This document shows, piece after piece, positions 1 to 64,000 of a stretch of DNA of 64,000 nt. The stretch comes from Pyropia yezoensis (lineage: Eukaryota > Rhodophyta > Bangiophyceae > Bangiales > Bangiaceae): NCBI GenBank assembly GCA_009829735.1, contig CM020619.1:16745816-16809815 (forward strand), read 5' to 3'. Position 1 is the first letter of the stretch. Every line of letters begins with the position of its first letter. The translations under genes and the position numbers were made by a program. The notes under the pieces are model-generated. The model made no database searches. It was not told where the DNA came from and worked only from the letters and a program-made list of their open reading frames with translations.

Positions 1-203
1 CGGATCCGCCACCAGGCGTCTGGTGGTGGGGGGGCCCCTCTCGTGTGGACGATTGAGTGGGGGGCGGTTGGGAGTGACCCCGCTTGATTACCCCGCGTGG
101 GGGGGGCGTGGCTCCGGTCCAGGTGCCTGGGTGGAGCGCCCTCGTAGCTCGGCTGGCGTGGGTCGTCCCTCGCTGCCGTATCGCTCGTGCTGAGCTGTGT
201 GGT

Positions 204-209
204 TATAAG
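204..209 (+). promoter_or_regulatory. TATA-like box of the antisense gene
   Basis: TATAAG lies 108 bp upstream of the ATG at 317. The same hexamer is at the equivalent place in the second copy (10558-10563 on the minus strand). Conservation in two diverged copies suggests the antisense gene has its own promoter inside the retrotransposon. Confidence 0.5.
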
Positions 210-316
210 CGCGGGTGCCCACGCTTCCCTGGCTCGTCCGCGCGAGCGTTCCTTGTACCGGGTCGAGCCGGCCTCGGCCTTTCTGCACGGGGCGCCCCTG
301 CTACCCCGGTTTCACC

Positions 317-2686
317 ATGTCGGACCCCCAGGTACCCGGGGGCGAGGACGACCTCCTGCTTGAGGAGGAGGAAGGGGTGATGGTGGACGACGTTCCCGTC
401 TCTGCCACCGCTGCCGAGTGCTTCTTGACGAGCTCGTCCGAAGACGAGGGCGACCGGGTAACCGTCCGCGTGGCCCCGGAAGGTGCGCCGGGCGGTTTGT
501 CGTCAGTGTGCAGCGGCACGACGGCTCCGTCGGGTGGCGGGCAACCGCGTGTGGCAGCTGCCTCTACCCCTACTCCTCCGGCGGCCCGGATGGCTCCTGT
601 CGCCGGTGCCGGCGCGGCTCTACCTCAAGACGGCGTCGCCGGCGTGTCGGATGGTCGTGGCGGCACCCCGGCCGGGACGGCGGGTCAAGACGGCGCGGGT
701 GCCCGCCCGGCTGGTGTATCCGCGGCGGAGGGTAACGGGTCTACCCCTGCTGCCCCCGTGGTGCCCACGTCGGGCCCGGGTGGCGGCGATGCTCTGCCCG
801 CGGTGCCGCGGACGCTTGGTGGTCAAGAAGTGTCTACCCCGATGGCAGTGGACTCCGGGAGCTAATCCGGGCGGGCGCGCGCCCTTCTTCTTCCTCCTCG
901 GCCCTGTGCACCTCCGGCACCGGCCCATCTGCCGGTGGGGCATCCCCCGGCGCCCCCTATTCTTCCTGGTCCTGCCCGGGTTGCCCCTTTGGGTGGCGGT
1001 GTCGCCTTGGCGGCGGGTCCACCCGCTATGTCGATGTCCGACTTGGTGGCTCGGGTCCGAGGCCTGACGGTGCAGGAGTCGATGGAGTCCGTTGGGCGGA
1101 TGCGGGTGGACTTCCACCAGCCGCGTCTTCCTGGAGAGACCTTTCGGCGCGTCAAGGTGGACCCGAGTTGGGAGCGGGGGTTGGTGCGGCTGGTCAACCA
1201 GCCGAACGCGGTCCGGGTGGAACATCAGTGGATCCTGAGCCAGCCGGACGACCGGCATGCGCAGCTCTGGCGCACCCGGATGGGGCGGGGTGAGGTGTAC
1301 CTCGACTCCGCCTTCGGGATATGCGACTTGATTGCCCGCGCGTTGCCGCGGGAGGTTGACTACCCGGCTAGTGCTCGGGGGGTTGCGGCGGCGGCGGAGC
1401 CGGTAGCGTTTGGGGAGACAGTGGGTGATACCGGCCGGTATCCCGGCTTTAAGTACTTCCCGGGGGTATCCCCGTATCTGACGTTGACGGCTCCCTACCC
1501 GCCTATGGCGGGGTTGAAGTCGGCGTCCAGCTGGCGGCGCAACCATGGTGTCATGGCGGATGCGTTCCGCACCGATATAACATGTGCGTTGCAGACCGGC
1601 AACGGTCGTGCGTCGGTATACACTCCCGTGCGCCCACCTCTGTGGCAGGAGGGGTGGGAACCCGCCCCTGCTTTCCGGTTTGACACCGGCTCCTGCCTCC
1701 GGTACTTCGGGAGTGTGTTGGCCTGCCGGCCGGTCCACCCGTTGCAGGGTACCTTCACCCTTGAGGTTACCCTCGGGCAGACTTCCTCCTTCTTGCTGTC
1801 CGTCCGCCGGCAGGGGCGCCTGTTTCATCTTCCGACGGGTGTCCGTCGGCACATCGCGCAGTTGGGCGTGGACATGATAGCCGCCAAGACCGGGTTGGCC
1901 CGGGAGTTCGAGGCCCTGCTGGCTGTTCACGATGCCGTGAGCTGGGCTGGGGTGTTGGCTTTTCCCCCGTACCGGGATCCGCAGGCTGGGGCTTCCCCCT
2001 TGCCTCGTCACTCGTTGCGTATCCGGCGTACTCAGCCGGGTGAGCCCAATTGCCATGGGTGGGCGTCCACCGAGGCTGTTGCTGACCTGGGTATTCCCAT
2101 GGTTATCCATGACCCTCTTCAGGTCTTTGCCCCGTGGTTCGGTAACTTGATACCGGCGGCGTTTGGCCGTCGTCCCCGAGAGTGGGGCTCTGCGGGTGGG
2201 GAGCGTGAGGTGTCCCGTCGTCGGGCCGAGCCCCGCCGGGTTTACGGTGGGGCCCCTTCAGTAGGGTCCTACCGGGCCTCGTATCAGGTGCCACCGGCTC
2301 CGGTGGTAGCCGTATCGGCTCCTGCGGCTCCTCTGGCTGCGCCAGTGTCACCTCCCGCCCCTGTCCTGCATGACGGGGGTCCCCGTTTATGGTATGAGGG
2401 CGTTGACGCCCTTATTGCCCGCGCGATGCGGGGGGGTCTCTCTGTTAGCTGGGGGGATATCCTCCCAGGTGCTGCGCTGGTTGGGTCAGCGCGTTGCTTC
2501 GGTGGCGTGCTTGACCGCCTCCAGACAGCTCTGGAGGACGTGGAGGCTGGCCGCAGCACCCTCGTCCAGCTATGCACCGAGGTAACTCGTGCGGTTGACC
2601 GTCGCGAGATTGCCGACCGGTGGAGCATGGAGGTGTACGCGATTACGCGTGAGTGGCCTTCCTCTGGCAGTGGGTCTACCCACTGA
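317..2686 (+). CDS. antisense accessory gene of the retrotransposon, one internal stop
   Basis: One reading frame of 790 codons on the strand opposite gag-pol, in the 3' part of element A. A TAA at 863-865 (codon 183) is its only interruption; the frame before and after it is the same. The ATG at 317 has a good context (CACCATG). The N-terminus is acidic (Leu/Glu run near residues 12-19, Ser-Ser-Ser-Glu-Asp-Glu near 40) and Pro/Ala/Gly-rich to about residue 240. The rest looks globular, with ordinary Trp/Phe/Tyr content. I recognise no known family. A second copy at 10452 (minus) keeps the first ~100 residues with whole-codon indels, which supports coding. Not gag, env or integrase by any motif I can see. 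The minus-strand open frame over 620-2110 is Arg/Pro/His-rich and looks like a shadow. Confidence 0.7.
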
Positions 2687-3099
2687 GAAGTGCTATTGCT
2701 TGTGAGGGGGAGAGACCCGGTGACCCTTATGGTGGCCGGGTAGTAGTGAGTATAAACTCATCCCCCGCTGGGGCGTTTGCATGATACCAACGCCTGCCTT
2801 TGGTTCTTTCTCGCGCCCCCAACCCATCCTGGTTGGTTAATAATCATGAAGGTCAACCTTCCTTAGTCCGTCACTTGCCCCATGGATGAGGGTTTACATT
2901 GGTGTAAGCCTCAGGTTACTTCGAAATTATCGGAATTAGTTGTGTCCTTCAAGTAAACTTGTAAAAGTCAGTCGCTTACTTAGTTTGCCTAAGTCCGCTC
3001 CAACTTAGTGAACCTAAGTCTTGCCGAATCCATGTGACACCCTACTTAGTAGGTATAAGCCTCACCCCCCAACGGCCGAAGTCGGTGTCGGTTGGGTTC
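2687..3099. repeat. convergent spacer with small hairpins
   Basis: Spacer between the 3' ends of the antisense gene (+) and pol (-). It is AT-richer than both flanks. It contains ACTTAG-TTTGC-CTAAGT at 2978-2994 and ACTTAG-TGAAC-CTAAGT at 3003-3019: two 6-bp stems with 5-nt loops, same stem and different loops. A weaker third copy begins at 3044 and AAGTAAACTT lies at 2951-2960. No open frame. It may serve 3'-end formation for two convergent transcripts; that role is inferred from position only. Confidence 0.5.
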
Positions 3100-6000
3100 T
3101 TACAGCAGGCGTCGTCGCCTTATGTAAGGCATGAGAAGTTGGCGGGATATATTTGCCGCTTGTTCCCAGGTAGGTGAGTCGTATCCGACCCACATCACCC
3201 TGACGTACCAGGGTCCTGGTAGGTCTGGGTCGGTGTGTCCGACCACGCTCTCTACTTGGTATGGAATCCCATCCGGTCCCACCGGGTCATCTGACCGGTG
3301 GGTTGTAAGAGCTTCATGTAGCAACCCAGCCGGTACCGGCTGAGGCTGTTCCGGCTTCGGAGCAGGTGTGACATCGTTGAGGTTGATGCGTTGTATCTCC
3401 GTATCGGAGTGCAGGATGACAGAGTCATCATCTCTGTGTAAGATCTGGTACGGTCCCTGGATCGGTTGCATAAGCTTGTTTCCGCGGAACTTCTGGTGTC
3501 TGATATAGACCCAGTCACCTGTAACCAGGGTTGCGTTGCGTACCCGTAGCCGGGCGTCGAAGTTCTTCTTGTACCGAAGTTGTGTACGGTCAAGGGCACC
3601 CTTGAGCTTCGGAATCATCCACGATAGCTAGGCCAACCATGCGAAGTGGATTCGTTCGGCCGGTCGGTCCTTAGGTATATCATACCGAGTGCATCTGCCC
3701 GGTGGCAGCGTCAGGTTACCGACGCCCATCGGCATGACCCACTCCAGGGGGGCAATGGTGTTACTCCGGTGGGGCCTGGCATTGTATGCCAGGGTCAAGA
3801 CGGACAGAAGCCTGTCCCACGTCTTCGTGTGTTCCGCCACATAGCATTGGAGCATCTTGACGATGGTGCGGTTGAACCGCTCCACCTGCCCGGTGGACTG
3901 CGGGTGGTAGTCGGATGCCCGACGGGGTTCGATACCGAACATGCCCAAGACCTTAGTGCAGAATGCTGACGTAAGGTTTGCTTCGTTATCGGAGAGGAGT
4001 TGCTTCATTACTCCGTAAGCACTGATCCAGTGGTCAACCACTGCGTTCATGATGGTGTAGGCCGTATCATCCGGAATAGCTGCCGCTCGTGACGGCTTGG
4101 TGAAGCGGTCCGACATGACCGGGATGTACCTCTTCCCTTCTTCCGTTACCGGAAGCGGTCCGAGTATGTCGATAGCGACTTGCTCGTTGGGTCCATCCGG
4201 GGGGAACAGTTTCATAGCGGATGCCCGCCTATGAAGACTCATGCGATTCCGTGCGCACGGGTGGCATCCCCGCGCGTCGTCGATTACGTCGTCGGCCATT
4301 GCTGACCAGTAGAAGAACATTCGCATTGCTGCGAACATGCGCGAACCCCCCGGGTGTCCGGCTGTGGGGTTCTCGTGTTCTCGTTTCATGACGGCCTGCC
4401 GTAAGGACACGGGAACCACGACCTGATGCCGTCCATCGGCGGGTGCCCGCCGATATATGAGTCCGTCCTCGTTCTCGGAGAAAATGCCGGCCGTGCCGGC
4501 CAGGAGGTTAGCACGATGGCGTTTACAGTCATCGTCATTGGCCTGTGCCTCGCGGAAGTCCGCGAGGGTCAATGGGCACGCAAGGTGTGCCATGGTATGG
4601 TCAACCATACCTTGGGTAGCATTACCCACCATGCACACCGGTACCACCGGGATGTCTTCGTCCACCTGTCGGGTATCCCCGCTTGGGGTATCGAGTCGCG
4701 ACAGCGCGTCCCCCAGATGATGGGTGGAGCCGGCCTTATATATGGTCCGGTAGTCGTGCTCGGCCATCTTCAGCCTCCACCGGGCTAGCCGACCGTGGCT
4801 GTCGGAATCCTTGTCACCAAGGTTGAGAAGCCATCGTAAAGGTTCGTGGTCGGACCTTACGATGAACCTGGAACCTTCCAGGTATGGCCGGAGCAGTTGC
4901 ACTGCCCATATGACTCCGAGGCACTCGCGCTCTGTGGCACTATAGTTACGCTTAGCCGGGTTGAGTGTCCGGCTGAAGTACCCTACCGGATGTAGGTCCG
5001 GGATAGCATTATCGGTACCGATGATGGTCTCTCCCTGTAGCAGGGTGCATCCAACTTGGGTGTCGCAGGCATCGACGTCGATGACGAAGGTCCCGCGTCT
5101 GTGCGGCAACGCAAGCACGGGTGGGGCTAGCAGAGCTTGCTTGAGCAGTTCGAAGGCCTCTCCCTCGCTGGGCGAGGGAGGTTGGAGTACCTTTGGCAAA
5201 GCACTGCTCGTCAGAACCGTTAACGGTTTGGCTATACGAGCGAAGTCCTTGACGAACCGTAGGTATACTTTGCACATCCCCAGGAAGCTTTTCAGCTGTG
5301 TCTGGGTGGTTGGGTATTGCGCATCCCGGAGTGCCCGGGTATTAGCTTCGAGTACTCCCAGTTTACCTGGTGTGATCTGGTGACCCAGATACTCGACTGT
5401 CTGCTGGAAGAAGGCGCACTTCTTGAGGCGCAGGGTTACCCCGGCGTTCCGCAAGAGGGTGAGTACCTCGTCGACATGTTGCACATGGTCATCCATGTTA
5501 CGCGAGAAGACGATGACGTCGTCCAAGTACACCAGGCAGTTCCGCCACTTGACTCCCGACAGTATAATGTCGATGGCCCGTTGGAATGTGGCAGGGGCGT
5601 TGGACAATCCGAAGGGCATCCTTAGGAACTCGTACACGCCACTGTGACAGACGAACGCCGTCTTGGGGATATCCTCTTCCGCAACTGGGATCTGCCAGTA
5701 CCCGGCATTGCAGTCGATAGTGGTAAACACTGTGGCTACCCCCAGCGATGTGATGCACTCGTCCATCCTTGGTAAGGGGTATGAGTCTTTCTTGGTAACC
5801 AAGTTGAGGCGTCGATAATCGATGCAAAACCGAGGGGTCTGATCCTTCTTCGGTACGATAACGACTGGGGCGCCCCACTCCGACATCGAAGGTCGGATCA
5901 CCTTAGCTTCGCTCATCCTCTTCACTTCTCCATCAACGATCTCTCGTTGCATAGGTCCCGCCCGATGCGGTTGCGACCGCGCTGGTCGAGCACCTGGTAC

Positions 6001-7368
6001 CAGGTCTATACGGTGTTGGGTTGCCCCAATGGTACCCAGCGCCCCGCCGGTCCACATGACGTCGTGCTTTCTTAGCATCCGTCGAACCCCTTCAGCTACC
6101 GAAGGGGGAAGGTGGTCGAGGTCAGCCTCGGCCAGTGCCCTCAAGGCTTCTTGGTCCTTTGGCGGCATGTCCGCCGGAGCCGCTGATGGGTTAGGCTTCC
6201 CGTCATCGGGTTGCTGCCGCTTGATGACCTCGGTGACCGCCAGCACCTCAAGTGGTTCCACTTGACCCTCCTTGTCCGGGGTAAGGATATCTCCTTCGTA
6301 GAGCTCTGCAATCCCAAGGATAGTTCCCTTCGGGAGGGTGACTGCCTTACGGCGATAGTTCGCCATCACCAGCAGTGATGACCCCCCCGCTGGGAGGTCT
6401 GCGATACCATTGGCCATGGTCAACCCATGGCGCTTGTAGGTTCGTAGGTTGGACTGGACTCTGCAGATGCCTGCGAGGTCACAGTTAACCGGGAGGACGG
6501 TCTCCGATAGCGGCTCAAAGCGAGTCCGCTTGGCCAGCCGGAGTGTCTTCGGTTCTACGCTTGCGTATACCTCAGCCACGTTAACGTGGCTCCCTTGTAG
6601 CGTCAGGTCCCTGACGATAGCTGTCTGTCCTCTCTTCGTCCCGTCGGCCTCTTGCAGCTCGACGGTCCTCCGGCCCGGCCGGATTGCATCAACGTGAACG
6701 TTGATGAAGGTGCACCCCAGTATGCAGGGCACAGATAGCGTCTCACATACCAGGAAGTCAACTTCCGTAGTAAGCTCCCCGATGGTGACCTGCAGCGACA
6801 TCGCTGCGGTCGTACGAATGAGACGACCATTCGCATCCTTGATCGTGGGTCCCCGAGCAACTCTGACTCGCGGGAGCCACTTGTCCGGGAGGGTATCCTT
6901 CCGGATCAAGTTAGGTCCAGCCCCTGTATCCAGTACGGGGTAGTACGATCGGGTCGACTGGGGGTCAACCCCCAGTGTGGCTGATACCTTGAAGTTCTCC
7001 AAGGTGAACAGCACGTGGCCTACACCAATATCCGGTGTAGCTCGGGCATCCTGAACAGGGCCCTTGTCTGGTTCCATGTGACGGGGCTTCCCGTCCTCTC
7101 CTCCCAACCTTGGAGGTTGGTCATCAATCCCCTGACGCCGTTTCGTCGGGGTCGGAAGGTGTACCCGGGGGTTGATGCGGCGTCGGCTCAACCGCGCTCT
7201 CCGTGGGGCTTTCCCCGCGGCAGTCCGGGGTGGCTTGCTAGGGTTACCCCGGCGACCCCGTGTCGTCCTTCCTCTTACTCGTTTCCCGTGCTCGGCCGGG
7301 TACTGTCCTCCGGGACATCCGAGAGCGGGGGTGCCTCCTCGACTGCCAGTACTCCTCCTGGAGCTTGC
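3100..7368 (-). CDS. pol: pol polyprotein (PR-RT-RNaseH-IN-chromodomain), one TAG
   Basis: The pol frame is open from about 7368 and overlaps the end of gag in the -1 frame. Counting from a TTG at 7191, the protease has Asp-Thr-Gly at 88-90, the reverse transcriptase YLDD at 555-558, RNase H follows at about 700-830, and integrase has the zinc-binding H939/H946/C976/C979 and catalytic D1008, D1068 and E1104 with exactly 35 residues between the last two. All catalytic residues are present. An in-frame TAG at 3628-3630 then separates integrase from its C-terminal part, which continues unshifted to 3100 and ends in a chromodomain (YVRVMWVGYDSPTWE near 3160-3210). The chromodomain places the element among chromoviruses. 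This copy's TAG would remove the chromodomain unless read through. Confidence 0.92.
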
Positions 7369-9452
7369 TGCCTACCCGGTGCCGGGCCTCGGGCGGGATA
7401 CCCACCCATGGATGCCTTGCGTTGCGCCGCTGCCCTTCGAGACTCCTCCGGGATGAGCGGGCATGCGGACACCCAGTGTTGGGGGTCTCCGCACAACATA
7501 CATCCGGACGTGCCGGCCGTCCCGGGCGTCCGCGTCGGGTTGGCTCCATAGGTCCGGTTGCCTGCCTCGGGCGCCCGAGTGCCCGCCCCTTGGTAGGCCT
7601 TGGGTACCGGTGCCAGCCGGAACATGGACTCCCCCAACCGGTTGGCTCTACCCGCGATGTGCGGGGGTGCCTCCGTACGTACTGCCCAGGTCGGCAGGGG
7701 CTGGTGGGGGTTACCCGTAACCGGGGCATACCCCGTAGTGCGTACATACGGGACGCGACGGCCCGCACCCTCGTTGACCTGGAACTGAGTCCCAGCCGGG
7801 GCGATGTACGCCACCGTACCATGCTCATCAATCACCGGCGTCGCCGGTAGCAACAGGTGGCCCTGTTGGTCGACTAGAGGTTCATCCTCCCCGGTAGGGG
7901 TCTGTTCGGTCGCCACCAGTACTGGTGCGGCCTTACGTTCCACCTTCTCTTGCCTCGGTACCGGGGTAAGACTGGGATTGCCTCCCTCACCCTTGGGCTT
8001 CGGGGCCAAGGCACATTCCGGGTGTAGCACCCGGTAGGCGTCCCCTAGGGACTTGCACATATGCATCAGTCGACTGAAGCTCGTCCGGGCCGTATTGGCT
8101 CCCCGTGCGGATATCTGCACGTAGTTGGGTACTCCTGCGAACAGGATGGCCCGTAGTTCCCCTTCACCGAGGAGCTTCCCCAGCTCGTAGTCGAGCTCTT
8201 GGATCCGGCGTCCAAACATCTCCTCATCCTCCCAGGACTGGGCGGTGGCAGTGCGAAGGGCCCGATAGTGGTCTTCGCACTTGTCCTCACTGAGGTAGCT
8301 GCTAAGCAACTCCTTCAATATACCACGGTAATCCATGGGGGTGGCTGCGACCCTCATTCCCGGCATCGAGGATGCCTGGCGGAGGATGCCTCGAACCCGC
8401 TCGTCAACAAAGAACGGGAGGATCTCCAGCGCCAGCCCCTCGTTGACGAGTGCCTTGTCTGCGGCAGCCTTGAAGCTAGTCAAGAAGCCGATGACTGCCA
8501 ACGGGCGTCCGTTGGGGCCCCCGAACATAGGGACTCCCGTCATAAGGGTCTGCATAGAGCGAATCGCTCGGTGCGAGGTCGTACGCATCGATTCCGATAC
8601 GGCAGTGGATCGGTCCTCCAAACGATAACGTTCGGGAGTCAGTACCGACCTGAAGATTTCGTTGACAATCTCCGTGTCGGCGTCCTGGATATCCAGTCGC
8701 TTCGCCAGTTGATGAGTGAGCTCATCGGACTCCAACCGCTTCAGTAAGCTCGCAGTAACCTGCGCTGTCATCGCTTGCACCAGTGACGCTGGAACTTCCG
8801 GCGTCGGCGCCTCGGGTACCCGAGTTGCCTGGCTTCCGTCGTCGAGGGGGTAAGGGGAGACGGTACCGTCTCCCCCCATCGCCGACTCTGTTCCGGCGTA
8901 AGTATCCGCCGGACCATGTCCGCGGAGCCCGCTCTGGGTGCTCCGAGCGTAGCGCTCCGTATGGCTACGTTCCAACTCACCGGACGAGTCGGATCCATAA
9001 CCCGCCGTGTCCGGGGGTTGTCCAGGAGTAGCAACACCGGGGTTGACCCTGGTGGCCTCCGAAAGTAGTCCGGCCGGTTCGAACCGTACCGGTGTGGGGG
9101 GGACCCGACGGGGTACCGTCGTATGGCATGCTGACATCAGCACCGCCATTGCGTCCTCCGTACGCTCTTGACGGGCGTCGAGCCCGGTGAACCGGGCCTC
9201 GATGCGAGCCAATGATGCCATCAGGGAGTCCCCTGGTGAAGGTGGCTGCGGCGTGAGGTCGGCAGAGGACAGTTGCGGCGGCCCGCCGCCCCCGGCCGTC
9301 CGTGCCGTACCAAACGTCGATCCGGCACCGGAGAGCATCGGCGTCTCAATGTTCTCGATCGGGTTACCGATCCCGGTTCCCGGGTTCAGCTCCGGGGTCG
9401 GCGTCGACGCCGATCCGTCATCTTGAACGTTCCTCGTCTCTTGGGTAGACAT
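7275..9452 (-). CDS. gag: gag polyprotein with CCHC zinc knuckle
   Basis: 725 residues from ATG 9452. The N-terminal third is Ser/Thr/Pro-rich and disordered-looking. A helical capsid-like region occupies roughly residues 270-480, with the Trp/Glu-rich pattern of Ty3-type Gag. A zinc knuckle CMLCGDPQHWVSAC (C-X2-C-X4-H-X4-C) near residue 651 is the nucleocapsid signature. The gene follows the primer-binding site by about 210 bp and overlaps pol by about 94 bp. It packages the RNA and forms the particle. No stop or frameshift breaks it before its own TAA. Confidence 0.88.
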   Translation of the reverse strand: MSTQETRNVQDDGSASTPTPELNPGTGIGNPIENIETPMLSGAGSTFGTARTAGGGGPPQLSSADLTPQPPSPGDSLMASLARIEARFTGLDARQERTEDAMAVLMSACHTTVPRRVPPTPVRFEPAGLLSEATRVNPGVATPGQPPDTAGYGSDSSGELERSHTERYARSTQSGLRGHGPADTYAGTESAMGGDGTVSPYPLDDGSQATRVPEAPTPEVPASLVQAMTAQVTASLLKRLESDELTHQLAKRLDIQDADTEIVNEIFRSVLTPERYRLEDRSTAVSESMRTTSHRAIRSMQTLMTGVPMFGGPNGRPLAVIGFLTSFKAAADKALVNEGLALEILPFFVDERVRGILRQASSMPGMRVAATPMDYRGILKELLSSYLSEDKCEDHYRALRTATAQSWEDEEMFGRRIQELDYELGKLLGEGELRAILFAGVPNYVQISARGANTARTSFSRLMHMCKSLGDAYRVLHPECALAPKPKGEGGNPSLTPVPRQEKVERKAAPVLVATEQTPTGEDEPLVDQQGHLLLPATPVIDEHGTVAYIAPAGTQFQVNEGAGRRVPYVRTTGYAPVTGNPHQPLPTWAVRTEAPPHIAGRANRLGESMFRLAPVPKAYQGAGTRAPEAGNRTYGANPTRTPGTAGTSGCMLCGDPQHWVSACPLIPEESRRAAAQRKASMGGYPARGPAPGRQQAPGGVLAVEEAPPLSDVPEDSTRPSTGNE
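7281..7287 (-). promoter_or_regulatory. -1 ribosomal frameshift heptamer GGGAAAC
   Basis: On the minus strand the gag codons here read ACG GGA AAC GAG TAA, so G GGA AAC fits the X XXY YYZ pattern exactly in the gag phase, one codon before the gag stop. pol is in the -1 frame and already open here. A 7-bp stem (CCGGGGT/ACCCCGG, 7225-7252) lies 28 nt downstream, farther than the usual 5-9 nt spacer, so the stimulatory structure is uncertain. Confidence 0.7.
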
Positions 9453-9660
9453 AGTCGCAATCAGTCAACCGACGTAACAGTCACCACGAATAGGAGAGCG
9501 AGGGGGTAGTTGGGGGAGAGTAACCGTAGATTGCAGTCAAACGCAACCACTCAAAACATTCAACAGATCGCAGCACCACGAGTACAAGAAAAGGACTGGA
9601 TCCCTATCCGTGTGCCAGGGCCGAAGACGGCGTCACCACAAGGGTGACGGAGACCCGTCC

Positions 9661-9676
9661 CCTGCTGCTCCACCAA
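9661..9676 (-). other. primer-binding site of element A
   Basis: Just inside the 5' LTR the minus strand reads TTGGTGGAGCAGCAGG, with the TGG expected of a site pairing with a tRNA 3' CCA end. I cannot name the tRNA. The 208 bp from here to the gag ATG is the untranslated leader and holds no other feature I can see. Confidence 0.6.
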
Positions 9677-10040
9677 TGTAGCACAATAGGGTATCCGTTA
9701 CACGTCCACTCTCAGGGAACACTCACCAAGGGGGATCGGCACCAACGTCACCGGGAGGCCAAGGTTGCTGTCCTTGGAGCGCAAGCCACGGGACCAAGGT
9801 GGGAGCCCAAATGGGAGGGGTTTGTTGTTCTACCTTGGCCGGCGGTGGATTCGCCGCCGGCCCCCTCGTTATAAACCCTCGGAGACACTACTAACTACCC
9901 TCCACCCCAAGATGCAAGTCCCGCTGGTCATACGTAACTTATCGATACCGTGACCAGTACGGACTCCCAAATTGAAAGTTAAGGGTTAGAAGTAGCCCCC
10001 CTAATATTAGGGTCACAATACGGACATCCATATTGCTACA
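9677..10040 (-). repeat. 5' LTR of element A
   Basis: 364 bp bounded by TGTAGCA...TGCTACA. Transcript-sense orientation is minus. A TTTATAACGA box (plus strand TCGTTATAAA, about 9868-9877) is a probable TATA element. Homologous to 11035-11396 (inverted) and 26952-27313 (same orientation). Confidence 0.93.
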
Positions 10041-10452
10041 TAGGCACGTGAGGCAACAGGCATACCACTATCGTAGTTCCCCTTTCTGTGTTACCTGTCC
10101 CTTTCCCCCGAGGGATATTGACACCTGTCTGAGAGGATCGAGCTTTATACCATAGAGCCGAGCTGGTACCGGCGCCAGGACCCATCCGGGCAGCCGCAGG
10201 AGTAGGAAGAGGAGCCGACACACGCGGTTGACCGCCCCCCGACGGCGCCGTCGCGCCGCTGCACACCGACGAAGGCCCGCCCGTCGGACCAGCCGCCGAC
10301 ACGCGGACGGTTACGTTGTCCTCGTCGTCCTCCGACGAGCTCGCCTGGAAGCACTCGGAGGCAGTAGGAGCGACGGGCACGTAGTCCTCCATCACCTCTT
10401 CCTCCTCAAGCACGAGTTTGTCCGTGCCCCCGGGCACCTGAGGGTCTGACAT
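10036..10452 (-). pseudogene. truncated second copy of the antisense gene
   Basis: ATG 10452 opens a frame whose first ~100 residues match the gene at 317-2686 (shared MSDPQVPGG start, acidic run, SSSED patch, SGGGQPR). Differences include whole-codon insertions and deletions, so the frame is kept. Similarity stops near 10160; the tail then runs through unrelated DNA and ends inside the LTR of element A. It lies between a TATAAG box (10558-10563) and the breakpoint. The shared part argues that the antisense frame was under protein-level constraint when the two copies diverged. Confidence 0.75.
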
Positions 10453-11022
10453 GGTGAGTCCGGGGCGGCAGGGGTCCCCCGTGCCACCTAGCCGCAGCCG
10501 GCTCTACCTGATACGGTGGGAGAACATGGACGAGCCAGGGAAGTGCGGGCACCCGCGCTTATAACCACACAGCCCGGCACGGGCGATACGGAAACGCGGG
10601 AAGACCGGCGCCCATCGAGCTACGAGGTCGCTCCACCCAGGCACCTGGGTCAGGGCCACGCCCCCACACGGGGTAATCAAAGGGGGGTCACCCTGGAACC
10701 GCCCCCGCGAAGCGCGGGTAGTCCCCGCCCCCACTCACTCGTCCACACGAGAGGGGCTCCCCTACCACCAGATGCCTGGTGGCGGATCCGCTCGCACCAC
10801 TCCCCAGAAGACGGGGTCGTGACACAAGACCCGCATCGGGATTCAACGGTCCGGAAAACGGATAGTGTGCACCACACAAAGGGGGGCACCCCCCTCAATC
10901 AACCCCAAAAAGGGGTGTCTGCCGCGACAGGGCGCAAAGCCCCACCCGACTGGTAAACGGTCGCGCGACACAATTACATTCGGAAAGCCGAATGCAAATC
11001 GACCCGAGGACGGGCCGAATCT

Positions 11023-11034
11023 AAGGGGGGGAAA
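11023..11034 (+). other. polypurine tract of element B
   Basis: AAGGGGGGGAAA directly before the 3' LTR, the expected plus-strand primer site. It fixes the sense of element B as plus and confirms that the antisense gene lies just inside the 3' LTR. Confidence 0.8.
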
Positions 11035-11396
11035 TGTAGCAATATGGATGACCGTATTGGGACCCTAACCTAGGGGGACTACCTCTATCCCTTAACTTTC
11101 AATTTGGGAGTCCGTATTGGTCACGGTATCTGCGAGTTACGTATGACCAGAGGGACTCTAATCTTGGGGTGGATGGTAGTGAGTGGTGTCTCCGAGGGGT
11201 TGTAACGAGGGGGCCGACGGCAAATCCACCGCCGGCCACGGTAGAACAACAAACCCGTCTCATTTGGGCTCCCACCTTGGTCCCGTGGCTTGCGCTCCAA
11301 GAACAGCAACCTTGGCCTCCCGGTGACGTTGGTGCCGATCCCCCTTGGTGAGTGTTCCCTGGGAGTGGACGTGCGACGGTTTTCTATTGTTCTACA
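11035..11396 (+). repeat. 3' LTR of element B
   Basis: 362 bp, TGTAGCA at the start and TTCTACA at the end, inverted relative to 9677-10040. The TATA box is mutated (TTGTAACGA), so this copy is older or decayed. Confidence 0.9.
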
Positions 11397-12682: not shown

Positions 12683-13190
12683 GCGCCGTGACAGTGCGTG
12701 GACGGGGGCTCCTCGGCGGCACCGCCTACTGCGTGGGCTGCTGGCGAGCTAAAATCCGCGGGAGTTGGGTGGCAATCCCATCTCTACCGTCAGTGGGCGT
12801 ATGCAATGTGCGCACAGTACGTAGTCGATGTGAAAATTACTTTGGCGGATCAAGGCCAGCCCACGGCGGCGTCGTGGTCCCGTTCCGACCTGTTCGACTC
12901 GGACACCACTCACCGTCGGCGCCGCGACCAGCCAGCTGAGCTGACCGCGTTGCGAACGTGGCCCTGCTCTTTTTCTCTGCCCTGTTCTTTCCCATGCCTG
13001 CCTTCCTTTGCTCACCCTTTCAGGGCTTTGTCGGGCTCTGCGGCACCGCCGTCGTCCAACTCGCCATCCTGTTGACCTCCTCGACACACTGCTACGCTCA
13101 ACTGTTACCTTACCCTTGCGTATCCTGTGCCCTCCTTCCCCCCCTCTCCCTCGCCGCGGCACCCTGGCGGGTCCCCCCCAAGCGGCCGCG
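12683..13190. other. upstream region of the AC40 gene
   Basis: No gene recognised. The downstream frame is open upstream of the chosen ATG, but that stretch is Arg/Pro/Leu-rich and unlike the family. I see no clear TATA box. Confidence 0.4.
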
Positions 13191-14387
13191 ATGGAGGTGG
13201 ACACAACTGCAGCACTAGAGCCGTCACCTGCCGCCGCCGATGCCTCTGGGGCGACCCTCCCCCCCCACCTGGAGCGCATCCGGTCGCGGGTGGAGGTGGG
13301 CCTGTCCCGCCCTTCCAACACGGCAGGCACGTACGGGGCCAACTCGTATACGCCGTCGGGGTACGACAACTCCCTCTCCCCTGCCCTCTTTGCGGCCCGC
13401 CTGTGCATGGCCGTCTCCGTCCTCACCGACGAGGAGCTGGTTTTTGATATGGCCGGCCTGGATGCGCCGCTGGTCAACGCCCTCCGCCGCATCCTCCTCG
13501 CCGAAGTGCCGTCGGTGGCGATTGAGCGAGTGCTCATCCGCAACAATACCTCTATTGTGCACGATGAGATGCTGGCCCACCGGTTGGGCCTGGTGCCCCT
13601 GCGGGTGGACATTGCAGCGCTGGAGGATGTGCCACCACCTGCAGACGGGGAGGACCCAACGACTTTGCCCTACACGTCTGCCAACCACGTGGTACTACGG
13701 CTCAAGGTACGCTGCAGTGATGTGCCAGGCGCGCCCCCCGACGCGCCACCCACGGTGCGCTACAAAAACGCACACGTGCTGTCCAAGTCGCTTCAATGGA
13801 CGCCCGTAGGGGACCAGGCCGCGTGGCTCACTGACGGGGTCGAGCCTGTCCACGACGACATCTTGCTGGCCAAGCTGCGGCCCGGCCAAGAGATTGACAT
13901 TGAGGCGCACGCCATCCGTGGGGTGGGCCGCGTCCACGCCAAGTGGAGCCCCGTCGCCACCGCCTTTTACCGCATGCTCCCAGAGGTGACTCTCCGGCGA
14001 CCATTGGCGTCGGCGGAAGCCTCCACGCTCGTCGCCGCGTGCCCTGCCAACGTTTTTGACCTTGAAGATGTGGCCGGCCGCGGCGGTGGGGACGGCTTTG
14101 GCGTCTCCGTTGCCCGGCCCCGCGCGTGCACCATGTGCCGCGAGTGTATACGGCTGCCTGAGTTGGCGGGGGCGGTGGACCTGACCCGCCGTCGGGAACA
14201 CTTTGTGTTTTCGGTGGAGAGCTCCGGCGTGCGGCCGCCCGTGGACCTGTTCCGCGACGCTCTGGACGTGCTCGTTGCCAAGTGTCAGGTGGTGTTGGAC
14301 GCACTGGATGAAGTGACGGGGGAAGGGGGGGGCGCGGGGGAAGAGGCTGCTGAGGTGGAGGAAACGGGCGGGGACGAGGACTTTTGA
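13191..14387 (+). CDS. RPAC1: RNA polymerase I and III subunit AC40 (RPAC1/POLR1C)
   Basis: 398 residues in one exon. AC40 pairs with AC19 to form the alpha-like assembly platform shared by RNA polymerases I and III. Recognisable family motifs run in order: the N-terminal dimerisation signature (LVNALRRILLAEVPSVAIE), HRLGLVPLRVD, then RVHAKWSPVATAFYRMLPEV near the middle, a CTMCREC cluster, and the C-terminal helix. The insert domain between the two halves of the dimerisation domain is present. Yeast and human proteins are about 335-346 residues; the excess here is an N-terminal ~30-residue Ala/Pro-rich lead and an acidic Gly/Glu C-terminal tail. ATG 13191 was chosen because the family similarity starts soon after it. 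The gene converges on the membrane protein gene with 254 bp between stops. No break. Confidence 0.95.
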   Translation: MEVDTTAALEPSPAAADASGATLPPHLERIRSRVEVGLSRPSNTAGTYGANSYTPSGYDNSLSPALFAARLCMAVSVLTDEELVFDMAGLDAPLVNALRRILLAEVPSVAIERVLIRNNTSIVHDEMLAHRLGLVPLRVDIAALEDVPPPADGEDPTTLPYTSANHVVLRLKVRCSDVPGAPPDAPPTVRYKNAHVLSKSLQWTPVGDQAAWLTDGVEPVHDDILLAKLRPGQEIDIEAHAIRGVGRVHAKWSPVATAFYRMLPEVTLRRPLASAEASTLVAACPANVFDLEDVAGRGGGDGFGVSVARPRACTMCRECIRLPELAGAVDLTRRREHFVFSVESSGVRPPVDLFRDALDVLVAKCQVVLDALDEVTGEGGGAGEEAAEVEETGGDEDF

Positions 14388-26893: not shown

Positions 26894-27497
26894 ATGGCCG
26901 CTGCCGACGCCGCCAACGTGCTGGGTGAGCTTCGACGATGCCTCGGCAGCCTGTAGCACAATAGGTATCCGCAGCACGTCCACTCTCAGGGAACACTCAC
27001 GAAGGGGGATCGGCGCCAACGTCACAGGGAGGCCAAGGTTGCTGTCCTTGGAGCGCAAGCCACGGGACAAAGATGGGAGCCCAAATGGGAGGGGTTTGTT
27101 GTTCTACCATGGCCGGCGTTGGATTCGCCGCCGGCCCCCTCGCTTTAAACCCTCGGAGACACTACTAACTACCCTCCACCCCAAGATGCAAGTCCCTCTG
27201 GTCATACGTAACTTGTAGATACCGTGACCAATACGGACTTCCGAATTGAAAGTTAAGGGTTAGAAGTAGTCCCCCTGCATTCGGGTCACAATACGGTCAT
27301 CCATATTGCTACACAGCCGCGCAGATCGGCCAGTCGAGGCCACCGAACTGTCAACCCCAACCCGCAAGGCAGCGCTCAGTCGGTGGCGGGGGCAACTGGG
27401 AGAGACGCGGGAGATCGACGCCCTGTCTGAGACACGGGTTGCGGTCACTGACAGGTTCAGTGGGGCAGGTTGGCATTTACCGACATTTCCAAAGTAG
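26894..27497 (+). pseudogene. small ORF split by a solo LTR
   Basis: ATG 26894 opens a frame that meets the solo LTR after 19 codons and hits a stop at its edge. After the LTR and one copy of the target duplication are discounted, the frame continues without shift to 27497 for 79 codons in all. The sequence is helical and charged. It may instead be a first exon, since GGCAG|GTTGG near 27468 could be a splice donor. Function unknown. Confidence 0.4.
26952..27313 (-). repeat. solo LTR with 5-bp target duplication
   Basis: 362 bp, TGTAGCA...TGCTACA, same orientation as 9677-10040. CAGCC flanks it at 26947-26951 and 27314-27318, a perfect 5-bp duplication as made by Ty3/gypsy integrases. No internal sequence remains, so it arose by LTR-LTR recombination. 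Confidence 0.95.
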
Positions 27498-36740: not shown

Positions 36741-37560
36741 GAGGACGTGCGGGACGTTGCTGGTGATTGGTGGCGCGCGCGCGCGGGCCCCATGTGGTCC
36801 TGCACGGCGCGCGCAGGCCTCTTGCGGTGCTGCACGGCACGCGCGCGCGGCTCTGTGTGCTGGTCACCAGCACGGTACCAGGCGGGAAGCTCAAACGGAG
36901 ATGGCGCCCGCCGTTCGTTCTCTCCGCCCCCCCCCCCCCGGCATCGTGCCCTGTGACGTGATAACGCCGGACCAATGGGTGTGCAGACTGGGTTCGACGA
37001 CGCGCGAAGCGCCGTCGACGCGCGAAGCGCCGTCGGGACGCGCAGGGCAGCCAACGAACCAAGCAGGAATTGGCGGGCGGCCGGGCAGACTTCCGCATTT
37101 GCAGCATGTGCGCCCTACTTGTCCCTAGCAGCCTCAAATCGGGATCGTGCTGAAAGTCTGACAGAAGGACGTACGCAGAGACTTATTCTGAGCGAGTTCG
37201 AAAGTCCTTTTGGCCTTAAAGTCCGTTTGCTATGTATGTGGTGCTTGCATCGACTGCTGTTCGCCGTGACGGCGAATTCTACCTCTCGGCAGTGATGGTG
37301 TTGCGCGAGGTCCTCCCGCCGGCACGCAGCCGGCCTTCGGTACGGGGTGGGGGAGGGGGGGGAGGCAGAGCTGGTGGCAGACCCGGGGAGCGTCCACCTC
37401 ACCTATGGCGACTACCCGCCCCTGTATTGGCGAGAGGAGGCGGGGGGGGGGGGGGGGGGGGGGGGTGCCGGCGAATGGTGGGGGTGCCGGCGGCAGCGGC
37501 AGTAGCAGCGGTGGCAGCCCCCCCGACGGGTCGCCTAGCACGACGTCGGGGGCGGCAGCG

Positions 37561-37591
<31 letters not shown>

Positions 37592-37663
37592 CGGTGGCGG
37601 CGGTGGGGGGCGGGACGCGGGCGGCCGGGAGTGCGGATGGGGCCCCCATCCCCCCTCCGCCTG
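36741..37663. other. intergenic and simple-sequence DNA
   Basis: No gene seen. Alternating GC stretches near 36776 and a poly(G) run of 24 at 37442-37465, then a GGC/GGT trinucleotide block up to about 37600 that produces Ala-, Gly- and Arg-rich frames in all phases. Confidence 0.5.
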
Positions 37664-38389
37664 ATGCAAATGTTCCTCTACCTCCGCTACTCCCTTGACG
37701 ACAACCACTATGCGCAGCCGCTCGACCTGTTGCCCATTGTGGAGGTCAACGCCCAGGCGGTGGTGGCCATCCACGGGGCCGACGAGCTACCGCCGGCGGG
37801 CGCGCCCGCACAGACGGACATGAACTACCGCAGGCGGGAGGTGGGACGCAACACCGCCCTCCCGTGCACGTGGCGCGCCGACCCCCCGTCGCCGCTATCA
37901 GTCGTCCAGCCAGACGTGCCGTCGTATGCCGTCGCCGGCCGGGCGGTGGCCTGGCAAGAGTGGACCTTTCGGGTGGGCTTTAACCCCCGGGAGGGCCTCG
38001 TCCTCCACAACCTCTACCACGGGGGGCGGCGGGTGGTGGACCGGGCCAGCCTGGTGGAGATGGCCGTCCCGTATGGAGACCTGGGGGGGCCCCACCCCCG
38101 CAAGTGCGCGTTTGATTTGGGGGACTGTGGGCTGGGCGTTTGCGCCGTGTCGCTGGCCCTGGGCTACGACTGCCTCGGCGCCATCCACTACTTTGGGGCC
38201 ACCCTGTCGCACGCGGCGGGGGAGCCGGTGGAGGTCCCCCGGGTGGTGTGCATGCACCAGCACGTGTTTTGCTGCCGCCTGGACGTGGCCATTGACGGGG
38301 CGCGCAACACGGTGTTCGAAGTGGAGCCTGCGATTTCCCTTCACTTGAGGCGCATCTGTCCCTCGCCCCGCCTGCATCCCATCCACTGA
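37664..38389 (+). pseudogene. copper amine oxidase fragment lacking the topaquinone segment
   Basis: Copper amine oxidases oxidise primary amines using copper and a tyrosine-derived topaquinone (TPQ). This frame matches the family from DDNHYAQPLDLLPIVEVN through WRFRVGFNPREGLVLH-like (here EWTFRVGFNPREGLVLHN), RASLVEMAVPYGD, AFDLGDCGLG (catalytic Asp) to DCLGAIHYF. The family normally continues about 85-100 residues from the CMH motif to the copper-binding His-X-His; that stretch holds the NY(D/E)Y tyrosine that becomes TPQ. Here VCMH runs straight into QHVFCCRLD at 38250-38266. The C-terminal part with the third copper histidine is also absent: the frame degenerates after VFEVE. Upstream domains are replaced by simple sequence. 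It cannot form the cofactor, so I call it a pseudogene. Confidence 0.85.
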
Positions 38390-61610: not shown

Positions 61611-62139
61611 ATGCAGAATGCCAATAATATCGCCAGGCAGTGCACGGAGTGTTGACTGACCTACCACCTGGCGCGCACAGGCGAGCAGAGTGGAATTTAT
61701 CGCGTCAAGAGGAAAACATGTCCTAAAACAACCTCTGTACGTACGGTCGTTTTTCCTCGACCATTTATTAATTTGCCGCTCTGATTTCGATACGGGGTGC
61801 TGTGACGCGCACGCATTCGTGCACCCACGCACGCGCGCATGCATGCGCGCGGCGCCCGATGAACGGGCATGCACGCGCGCATGCGTGCACGCGCGGCCCC
61901 GTCCCCCCACCGCTCTCCCCGCCGCGCTCTGTGCGTCCAACCCCCCACCCCTCCCTTTCCCGGTTGTGCCGCGCCCTCTCCCCCTCACCCTCTGCACGGT
62001 GTGCCGCGCCCCCTCCCTCCCCCCACCCTCCCTTTCCCGGTTGCGCCGCGCCCTCTCCCCCACCCCCCGCCGCCCTCTCCACGGTGTGCCGCGCCCCCTC
62101 CCTTTCCCCACCCCTCCCCCCACCCCCCCGCTGCTTGTG
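61611..62139. other. simple-sequence DNA
   Basis: Alternating GCATGCGCGC stretches at about 61806-61895 (potential Z-DNA) followed by CCCTCCC-rich DNA with repeated CGGTGTGCCGCGCC. No gene. Confidence 0.5.
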
Positions 62140-63060
62140 GCGGCCAAGGCGGCGGGTTGTGTGGCGGTTGTAGCGGCCGGACCGGTGCGTTTGTTGTGGG
62201 GGGGGGGGGGGCGAGAAGAGGGGGCGTGAGGAGGGGGGGAGAGTGTGGGAGGGGTGGGGTGGCGGATCGGCGGCCGGCCGGGGGGGAGCACGGGCGCGGC
62301 GGCTCTGTTGGGGGAGGGAGGCAGGTCGCGCTAGCACCGGCGGCGCGTGTTTTCAAACCGCGCCGCCGCCGCTGCTGGCGTGCTGCCCCCAAGCCGCGCC
62401 CCCACCCCACGGCCGCTGATTCTCTGCCGTGCCCTTTTCGCCTCTTCCCCCCCACCCCCCTCCCCCACCTCCTCACCCCCCGCAGGTGGCAGCGGCCAAG
62501 GCGGCGGGAGGTGGTAGTTGCGGCGGTTGTAGCGGCCGGACCGGTGCGTTTGTTGGGGGGGGGGGGGGGGAGAGGAGGGGGCGTGAGGAGGAGGGGGGGA
62601 GAGTGTGGGAGGCGTGGGGTGGAGGATCGGCGGCCGGCCGGGGGGGAGCACGGGCGCGGCGGCTCTGTTGGGGGAGGGGGGCAGGTCGCGCTAGCACCGG
62701 CAGCGCGGGTTTTCAAACCGCGCCGCCGCCGCTGCTGGCGTGCTGCCCCCAAGCCGCGCCCCCACCCCACGGCCGCTGATTCCCTGCCGTGCCTTTTTCC
62801 ACTCTCCCCCCCCACCCCCCGCCCCCACCCCCTCCCCCCGCAGGTGGCAGCGGCCAAGGCGGCGGGAGGTGGTAGTTGCGACGGTTGTAGCGGCCGGACC
62901 GGTGCGTTTGTCGTGGGGGGGGTGGGGGCGAGAGGAGGGGGCGTAAGGAGGAGTGGGGGAGAGTGTGGGAGGCGTGGGGTGGAGGATCGGCGGCCGGCCG
63001 GGGGGGAGCACGTTCCCACCCCCCTCCCCAACCCCCCGCCCTCCTTGCAGGTGGCAGCGG
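62140..63060. repeat. ~355-bp tandem repeat
   Basis: The anchor GCGGCCAAGGCGGCGGG recurs at 62140, 62492, 62850 and 63057 (spacings 352, 358, 207). Each unit carries CCGGACCGGTGCGTTTGT, a poly(G) piece and GTGTGGGAGG. From the second unit on, the anchor follows a pyrimidine-rich CCCxCxGCAG, which resembles a 3' splice site. Part of the unit is shared with 53029-53175. Confidence 0.85.
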
Positions 63061-63146
63061 CCAAGGCGGCGGGCTGTGTGGTGTTGGCGGTCTGTGTGGT
63101 GCGCGTGGTGGCGAGGCCGACACCCCGCGGTGGCTCTGTAGGACCG

Positions 63147-64000
63147 ATGGCACCGGGAAAGGCCGGTGGTGGTGCCTGTGGTGGTGGCCGTGGCGGTGGT
63201 GGCGGCGGTGGTGGGGGCGGTGCCCGGGGTGGTGCCCGGAGCGGTTCCCGTGGCGGTCCCCGTGGTGGCGGTAGCGATGGTGGACGTGGCGGTGCCCGCG
63301 GTGGTGGTAGTGGTGGTTGTAGCGGTGGTGGACGTGGCGGAATCTCTAGTGGTGGCAGCATCGGTCACGGATCCGATAATGGCGACCGAGGAGTCGCCCT
63401 GCGAAACGCTGATCGCGACGGACGTGGTGACGATGACGGCGGACGTCGGGGTAGCCGCGGCACTGACCGACTTGGTCACGCTTTTCGCGACGCCGGCCGG
63501 CCTCGCACGACCTCCCGAGACACTACCGATTGTGGTCGCGCTCACGCTCGAAGCACCGATCGCGGTGGACGTGGAGGCGATGACGGCGGACGTCGAGCTG
63601 ATGGCGGTGGTGACCGACCTCGCACGACTTCCCGTGACACCACTGATCGTGGTCGCGGTCACGCTCGAAGCACCGATCGTGGTGGACGCGGAGGCGATGA
63701 CGGCAGACGTCGGGCTGATGGCGGCGGACGTCAAGCTGATGGCGGGGCTGACCGACCTCGCACGACTTCCCGTGACGCTACTGATCGTGGTCGCGATCAC
63801 GCTCGAAGCACCGATCGAGGTGGACGCGGAGGCGATGACGGCGGACGTCGGGCCGACGGCGGGGCTGACCGACCTCGCACGACTTCCCGTGACGCTGAGC
63901 GTGGTCGCAGTCGTAGCGCCGAGCGTGACGGTCGGGGTGCCGGTCGGGGTGGCGGTGGTGGTGGCGGTGGTGGAGGCGGAGGTGGTGCATCAGCGGGAGC
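63147..64000 (+). CDS. RGG/Asp-rich repeat protein, 3' end outside window
   Basis: From ATG 63147 the frame stays open for 284 codons to the window edge. The frame is also open upstream to the splice-like CTTGCAG at 63050. The first ~75 residues are a Gly/Arg domain (RGG, GGGRGG) like those of RNA-binding and nucleolar proteins. Then comes a 39-residue repeat (HARSTDRGGRGGDDG...DRPRTTSRD) with units at 63543, 63660 and 63798; the second unit has an extra 21 bp, exactly seven codons. Most differences between units are synonymous in this frame (CGC/CGT/CGA, GCT/GCC, GAT/GAC), which argues that this phase is the coding one. An Ala/Ser/Thr frame on the minus strand is its shadow. Family unknown. 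Confidence 0.6.
   Translation, partial: MAPGKAGGGACGGGRGGGGGGGGGGARGGARSGSRGGPRGGGSDGGRGGARGGGSGGCSGGGRGGISSGGSIGHGSDNGDRGVALRNADRDGRGDDDGGRRGSRGTDRLGHAFRDAGRPRTTSRDTTDCGRAHARSTDRGGRGGDDGGRRADGGGDRPRTTSRDTTDRGRGHARSTDRGGRGGDDGRRRADGGGRQADGGADRPRTTSRDATDRGRDHARSTDRGGRGGDDGGRRADGGADRPRTTSRDAERGRSRSAERDGRGAGRGGGGGGGGGGGGGASAG

What the first reader, a model, noticed from the sequence alone, without database searches (positions are those of the whole stretch)
1..11396. Chromovirus carrying a large gene antisense to gag-pol
Seen: a ~790-codon frame (317-2686) lies opposite in direction to gag-pol, between pol and the 3' LTR; a second element copy shows the same frame start, the same TATAAG box and the PPT/3' LTR just beyond. 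Indels between the copies are whole codons. Known: Ty3/gypsy elements normally carry only gag-pol; antisense or extra 3' ORFs are reported in some plant lineages. Inferred: the element encodes a separately promoted accessory protein, perhaps regulating the sense transcript or host silencing. I do not recognise the protein.
Basis: partly seen in the sequence, partly recalled or inferred. Interest (0 to 1): 0.88.

Follow-up and report, generated by a model that had tools for sequence, protein, structure and literature searches.

The report
Antisense accessory gene in seaweed retrotransposon
A very abundant retrotransposon of the nori seaweed carries, on the opposite strand behind its normal genes, an extra gene whose protein shows signs of being kept by natural selection and for which relatives were found only in the same seaweed genus or in unnamed samples.

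Summary
The window (host inferred: nori alga Pyropia yezoensis, from contig sizes and GC) holds a Ty3/gypsy element on the minus strand. Between pol and the 3' LTR lies a 789-codon frame in antisense. In this copy the frame has one stop (863-865) and pol has one too; 13 of 30 aligned genomic copies are intact.

It is a real gene. Variants shared between copies are strongly depleted of amino-acid changes (11 copies: core omega 0.08, whole gene 0.24, pol 0.10) and include no stops; private variants are far less constrained (0.56-0.79). The genome has 812 antisense-gene sites against 946-955 pol sites; in sampled sites the two are mostly paired in antisense at a fixed distance. TATAAG before the ATG is kept in 28 of 30 copies.

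No Pfam, PDB, phage, viral or prokaryotic relative was found. Homologues (50-60% over aligned residues) occur in Pyropia vietnamensis.

Antisense accessory genes at this place are a known kind (Grande, RIRE2, Retand, PvRetro13, Boty). This is a new variant: red alga, no recognisable domain, selection shown. Best guess: a separately promoted nuclear regulator of the element; that function is inferred only. The chromovirus label is unproven: the chromodomain match is below threshold.

The parts
317..2686 (+). antisense accessory ORF (789 codons; in-frame TAA at 863-865 in this copy)
   Evidence: translation; selection on the frame; 812 genomic sites
204..209 (+). TATAAG box 113 nt before the ATG (putative promoter of the antisense gene)
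   Evidence: sequence; hexamer present in 28 of 30 aligned copies
935..2686 (+). uninterrupted part of the antisense ORF in this copy (residues 207-789), holding the conserved core (about 241-615) and the C-terminal domain (about 691-789)
2687..3099 (.). convergent spacer between the end of the antisense ORF and the end of pol; variable between copies
3100..7191 (-). pol (protease, RT, RNase H, integrase, chromodomain-like end); in-frame stop at 3628-3630 in this copy
   Evidence: Pfam; ORFs
7275..9452 (-). gag (725 codons; very weak CCHC zinc knuckle match, E 0.12)
9658..9676 (-). putative primer binding site directly after the 5' LTR
   Evidence: sequence; the label rests on position and TGG start (recalled hallmark)
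9677..10040 (-). 5' LTR of the main element (TG...CA)
   Evidence: 348 of 364 aligned bases identical to its 3' LTR left of the window; flanks GCCTA/GCCTG, empty site GCCTG in L041
10041..10152 (.). piece of another repeat, the target of the main element; it cuts the second copy's antisense ORF
10153..10452 (-). second copy: first 100 codons of its antisense ORF
   Evidence: 69% median aa identity, median dN/dS 0.47
10558..10563 (-). second copy: TATAAG box
   Evidence: sequence
11023..11034 (+). second copy: polypurine tract
   Evidence: sequence
11035..11396 (+). second copy: 3' LTR
   Evidence: (90% to the main 5' LTR)

Best explanation
A high-copy Ty3/gypsy element of Pyropia yezoensis carries a third gene, antisense to gag-pol, between pol and the 3' LTR. 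It encodes a 789-residue accessory protein that helped the copies that gave rise to new copies. Steps: (1) the frame is translated and selected (shown by substitution pattern; about 0.95). (2) It is made from its own mRNA, started at the TATAAG box between the 3' LTR/polypurine tract and the ATG (inferred from position and conservation; about 0.7). (3) The protein has an acidic N-terminal tip, an Ala/Gly/Pro/Ser-rich stretch (probably disordered), a conserved ~375-residue core with an Arg-rich invariant stretch, a basic linker that could be a nuclear localisation signal, and a C-terminal domain; it most likely works in the nucleus on the element's own DNA, RNA or chromatin, as a regulator of transcription, export or silencing (inferred; about 0.4). 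Convergent sense and antisense transcripts could also form double-stranded RNA.
For: Selection: 30 copies (the best 30 of 75 scored places), shared variants 150 N: 178 S (omega 0.37), 0 stops; private variants 455 N: 246 S (omega 0.79), 19 stops; Fisher p 7e-9; core 241-615 shared omega 0.22. In 11 copies with complete pol: core 8 N: 44 S (0.08), whole gene 51 N: 94 S (0.24), pol 59 N: 251 S (0.10). In the other five frames shared variants include 5-12 stops. Fixed part of the element: 812 antisense-gene sites vs 946 RT and 955 pol-end sites, reversed-pattern control 0. On part of C1, 69 of 84 exact antisense-gene sites have an exact pol-end site in antisense, 67 of the 69 at 2.13-2.23 kb; 1 same-orientation neighbour. 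Promoter: TATAAG in 28 of 30 copies. Age: second copy vs 23 copies median dS 0.42, dN/dS 0.47; P. vietnamensis homologues. Nuclear guess: residues 1-50 net charge -15, basic linker kept in most of 30 copies, no transmembrane-like stretch.
Against: No transcript or protein data. No domain or fold recognised: no significant match in Pfam, PHROGs or PDB and two structure predictions with pLDDT 28 and 31. The basic linker is less well kept in the P. vietnamensis proteins. The first 183 residues evolve fast (shared omega 0.56, difference from private variants not significant); taken alone, only residues 241-615 show a significant contrast. Of 24 diverged places at 73-88% identity to the second copy, 4 have frames of 680 codons or more, two of them with a stop inside. 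31 of 100 exact pol-end sites and 35 of 100 exact RT sites lack an exact antisense-gene partner. The 30 copies were the best protein matches, so counts of intact frames and gap counts are biased in favour.
Confidence: 0.55

Rival explanations
1. The antisense transcript, not the protein, is what matters: it pairs with the sense RNA and feeds or dodges RNA silencing; the open frame is incidental.
For: The sense genomic RNA would be complementary to the whole antisense mRNA (geometry). The genome has one Piwi-domain hit. Antisense transcripts of retrotransposons may give siRNAs (review PMC7264820).
Against: Codon-specific selection (core omega 0.08, no shared stops) needs translation. As an addition to the protein it is not excluded.
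Confidence: 0.08
2. The gene is a former independent unit (a DNA-transposon gene or host gene with its own promoter) that inserted in antisense and is kept because it helps the element; its biochemistry is that of its unknown source.
For: Own promoter-like box and opposite orientation; homologues in P. vietnamensis named only as hypothetical proteins, one cluster with 19 members. The genomic context of those genes could not be seen.
Against: No related transposase or host family by sequence; no stand-alone host copy was noticed, but diverged ones could be hidden because only the best candidates are scored.
Confidence: 0.2
3. It is an envelope-like or particle protein rather than a regulator.
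For: It sits between pol and the 3' LTR, where env-like genes sit.
Against: Opposite orientation; no signal-like or transmembrane stretch (highest 19-residue hydropathy 1.29); no similarity to gag.
Confidence: 0.07
4. Chance open frame in GC-rich DNA, mirrored from a sense-strand gene.
For: GC-rich DNA has long spurious frames; the window copy has a 496-codon frame on the opposite strand (620-2110).
Against: The three opposite-strand frames have 7-9 shared stop variants each and shared omega 1.87, 0.44 (the one with coinciding wobble positions, 8 shared stops) and 1.68; the true frame has no shared stops and 0.37.
Confidence: 0.02

Closest known systems
Maize Grande gene23 (Ty3/gypsy)
   Same: Antisense gene between pol and 3' LTR; own promoter upstream; nuclear protein reported (review PMC7264820, two of three parts read; the original paper was not seen)
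   Different: Land plant; no sequence comparison made here; transcript and localisation reported there, not known here
Retand lineage antisense ORFs with the TRP28 domain
   Different: Non-chromovirus lineage of plants; Transposase 28 domain (PF04195) in 97% of clusters there, no Pfam match here
Rice RIRE2 and Phaseolus PvRetro13 antisense ORFs
   Same: Same position and orientation (PMC7264820)
   Different: PvRetro13 has an SMC domain (same review); none found here
Boty / BcGypsy1 brtn (Botrytis cinerea)
   Same: Ty3/gypsy element outside plants with an additional antisense gene (PMC7264820; PMC8365987 passages; the 2011 paper was not seen)
   Different: Fungus; sequence relation not tested
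Pyropia vietnamensis hypothetical proteins MMPV_009242, _008948, _008444, _008454, _009449, _006872
   Same: Homologues of the core and, in several, of the C-terminal domain
   Different: 50-60% identical over aligned residues (32-56% over the whole core, where two gene models lack stretches); not named as transposon genes; context not available

Membership tests
Ty3/gypsy LTR retrotransposon | gag, then pol in the order PR-RT-RH-INT | tested here: met
   RVT_1 8e-36, RT_RNaseH 1.7e-29, Integrase_H2C2 1.4e-13 above cut-off; gag-asp_proteas 2.9e-05 and rve 1.3e-06 a little below their cut-offs; in that order along pol
Ty3/gypsy LTR retrotransposon | two LTRs with TG..CA ends, short target duplication | tested here: met
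   LTRs 348 of 364 identical; GCCTA/GCCTG flanks, empty site GCCTG; the last bases of this copy's 3' LTR read TATA instead of TACA. Solo LTR with GGCTG on both sides
Chromovirus clade | chromodomain at the integrase C-terminus | tested here: inconclusive
   Pfam Chromo E 0.029 and 0.072, 14.7 and 13.5 bits against cut-off 25.1; no PDB match
Chromovirus clade | RT groups with the chromovirus clade in a tree | not tested
   no reference RT set was built
Antisense aORF between pol and 3' LTR (aORF-3R) | ORF in antisense between pol and 3' LTR | tested here: met
Antisense aORF between pol and 3' LTR (aORF-3R) | present in most copies and conserved like the other element proteins | tested here: met
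   812 vs 946-955 sites; core omega 0.08, whole gene 0.24, pol 0.10
Antisense aORF between pol and 3' LTR (aORF-3R) | antisense transcript from its own promoter | not testable with these tools
   TATAAG conserved in 28 of 30 copies; no RNA data
Retand lineage | TRP28 domain (PF04195) in the antisense ORF | tested here: not met
   no Pfam family for P0001 at E up to 10
Env-like aORF | sense orientation and transmembrane segment | tested here: not met
   antisense; no transmembrane-like stretch

The most novel reading that the evidence does not exclude
A red-algal retrotransposon carries an antisense-encoded, lineage-specific nuclear protein that controls its own expression or counters host silencing, in an alga in whose genome no PF00145 DNA methylase and only one Piwi-domain gene was found; this would be a red-algal invention parallel to retroviral antisense proteins such as HBZ and to Grande gene23.
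Probability: 0.25. Interest if true: 0.75.

Novelty: new variant of a known kind. Interest (0 to 1): 0.52.

Why it matters
In the papers seen, antisense genes behind pol are described in plant elements and one fungal element. A selected antisense gene with no recognisable domain in a red alga suggests that such genes arise independently, so they may solve a general problem of LTR retrotransposons. With about 810-955 sites in a 107-Mb genome, this family gives large natural statistics: purifying selection on the core of the antisense protein is as strong as on pol. It also gives an orphan protein family, with homologues in a second Pyropia species, whose function can be tested.

Tried and rejected
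Led nowhere: AlphaFold2 on the core with 3 and with 11 sequences (pLDDT 28 and 31), so no fold search was made; viral contigs with the protein, profiles and RT and genome contigs, no relatives; PHROGs; PDB by sequence (only matches with E 0.16 or worse). The first protein search found only two near-identical proteins, perhaps because the low-complexity N-terminus filled the candidate list; the search with the core alone found P. vietnamensis homologues.

Rejected: relation to gag; env-like protein; sense-strand gene in the same stretch.

Dropped before a count: the pol count on 19 loci (shared omega 0.72, 43 shared stops) was discarded because one search showed most of pol missing in 5 of the 19 (L033, L036, L040, L041, L044) and gaps in L045 and L049; these 7 and L039 (nearly complete but disturbed) were left out and 11 used. 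In one search the listed antisense-gene sites beyond 13.98 Mb of C1 were left out (15 of 100), those beyond 12.84 Mb (16 of 100). One search used 23 of 30 copies (those with the expected start string and no early stop).
Full report
What is there. The window is G000:C2:16745816-16809815. The three large contigs (43.59, 34.33 and 29.39 Mb) match the scaffolds of Pyropia yezoensis (43.6, 34.3 and 29.4 Mb; 65% GC; 48.0% of the genome predicted as repeats, LTR retrotransposons predominant) in PMC7423979 (passages). The host name is inferred from that match. On the minus strand lie a 5' LTR (9677-10040), gag (7275-9452) and pol (3100-7191) with protease, RT, RNase H and integrase domains in Ty3/gypsy order; the protease and rve matches are a little below Pfam's cut-offs. 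The 3' LTR ends about 250 bases left of the window. The two LTRs agree at 348 of 364 positions (K2P 0.045), so this insertion is not very recent. Its flanks GCCTA and GCCTG, and GCCTG at the empty site in another copy of the target repeat, fit a 5-bp target duplication with one change.

The antisense frame. ATG at 317, stop at 2684-2686 on the plus strand, with one in-frame TAA at 863-865 in this copy. Of 30 genomic copies aligned, 13 are open from ATG to stop; of the other 17 most have one or two stops, some a lost start or stop codon, and one a frameshift. The 30 are the best of 75 scored places out of 2568 first-look candidates, so that share is no estimate for the family. The window's own pol also has one stop (3628-3630).

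Is it a gene? I divided variants into private ones (one copy; mostly changes after insertion) and shared ones (two or more copies; mostly changes that passed through active elements). In 30 copies, private variable sites spread nearly evenly over codon positions (190, 176, 204) while shared ones pile up at position 3 (69, 72, 165). With transition/transversion-stratified site counts, shared omega is 0.37 against 0.79 for private variants (Fisher p 7e-9), and stop-making variants are 0 shared against 19 private. By part, shared omega is: residues 1-183 0.56, 184-240 0.53, 241-615 0.22, 616-690 0.41, 691-789 0.31; taken alone, the shared-private contrast is significant only for 241-615. The other five frames have 5-12 shared stops each; four have shared omega 1.48-1.87, and one minus frame has 0.44 because its wobble positions coincide, but with 8 shared stops. 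In 11 copies with complete pol the antisense core has shared omega 0.08 (8 N: 44 S), the whole gene 0.24 and pol 0.10; private omega there is 0.63 for the gene and 0.56 for pol, so private variants are less constrained but not fully neutral. Within the frame the 30 copies show 7 gaps against copy L016, 4 of them multiples of three, against 119 non-multiples and 33 multiples in the upstream 700 bases; the choice of copies by protein similarity favours this result.

Is it part of the family? Patterns of 26 bases with up to 3 mismatches find 812 sites for the antisense gene, 946 for RT and 955 for the pol end, with none for the reversed patterns. Only the first 100 places of each are listed. Among exact sites on part of C1, 65 of 85 antisense-gene sites have an exact RT site on the opposite strand, 62 of the 65 at 4.1-4.6 kb, and 69 of 84 have an exact pol-end site, 67 of the 69 at 2.13-2.23 kb, with 1 same-orientation neighbour. 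In the other direction 65 of 100 RT and 69 of 100 pol-end sites are paired. Mismatched partners were not searched, so the unpaired ones are not all true absences; 2 of the 35 unpaired RT sites were probed where the gene should be, and neither had it; one of these stretches was partly masked. TATAAG precedes the ATG in 28 of 30 copies, and TTCACCATGTCG is the start context in 19 of 30.

How old is it? The second copy in the window is diverged: its first 100 codons have median dN 0.19, dS 0.42, dN/dS 0.47 and 69% identity to 23 of the 30 other copies. A search with that piece scored 150 places of 975 candidates at 66-100% identity; many of the rows near 70% are main-type copies. Of 24 rows at 73-88%, which are closer to the second copy, 4 have frames of 680 codons or more, two of them with a stop inside, and the rest are shorter, so this older group is mostly decayed. 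Homologues were found in Pyropia vietnamensis (56%, 46% and 32% over the core; three more with a profile; 50-60% over aligned residues), all named hypothetical protein, some lacking internal stretches. Besides these, only four proteins from unnamed sources matched among 5.8 billion proteins (each search scored about 8,000 candidates), and nothing in IMG/VR contigs or prokaryote genomes.

What does the protein do? Known from sequence: acidic first 50 residues (net -15), Ala/Gly/Pro/Ser-rich 51-240, core 241-615 with the invariant Arg-rich stretch FLLS.RRQGRLFHL..GVRRH...LG in all 11 aligned sequences, basic linker around 616-650 kept in most of 30 copies, a C-terminal domain, and no transmembrane-like stretch. 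This suggests an intracellular, perhaps nuclear and nucleic-acid-binding protein. It is inference; no usable fold was obtained. The genome shows one Piwi-domain hit and no PF00145 DNA methylase hit, searched in six frames without regard to introns.

Comparison. Antisense additional ORFs between pol and the 3' LTR are a known kind: Grande, RIRE2, Retand, PvRetro13 and fungal Boty (PMC7264820, two of three parts read); in Retand 97% of clusters have the TRP28 domain (PMC11963269, abstract and passages). Grande gene23 is reported to have its own promoter and a nuclear product (same review; original not seen). The present gene shares position and orientation, and adds selection data and a protein without recognisable domain in a red alga. 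A 2012 survey found no retrotransposon chromodomains in the Porphyra yezoensis data it used (PMC3350952, passages); here the pol end matches Chromo only below threshold. Eight paper searches showed me, in the rows listed (often a part of all hits), no title or abstract start on an antisense gene in a red-algal element; the library lacks most subscription journals.

Verdict. A real, selected antisense accessory gene of a very abundant red-algal Ty3/gypsy family; new variant of a known kind; function unproven.

Noticed in passing
26952-27313 (-): Solo LTR of the same family, 93% identical to the main 5' LTR, flanked by GGCTG on both sides.
   Followed up: partly
10041-10152 and left flank in L031:1-204: Pieces of another repeat, also present in L036 and L041, into which the main element inserted.
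   Followed up: partly
13008-14387 (+): RNA polymerase subunit gene of the Rpb3/RpoA type in one open frame (RNA_pol_L 9e-18, RNA_pol_A_bac 3.5e-12).
   Followed up: no
61869-63998 (+): Long frame (710 codons, runs off the window) over repeats of about 360 and about 120-140 bases; no Pfam match.
   Followed up: no
37232-38389 (+): Frame matching the first part of the copper amine oxidase catalytic domain.
   Followed up: no
G000:C1:35731913-35732704 (-): Two neighbouring matches to the antisense gene's N-terminus, both in a 1047-codon open frame: possible internal duplication.
   Followed up: no
G000 (whole genome): The RVT_1 search scored 150 RT places of 3927 candidates, the window's own RT not among them, with recurrent frame lengths (1186, 1255, 1528, 1673 codons): apparently other retroelement families, whose 3' regions were not examined.
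   Followed up: no
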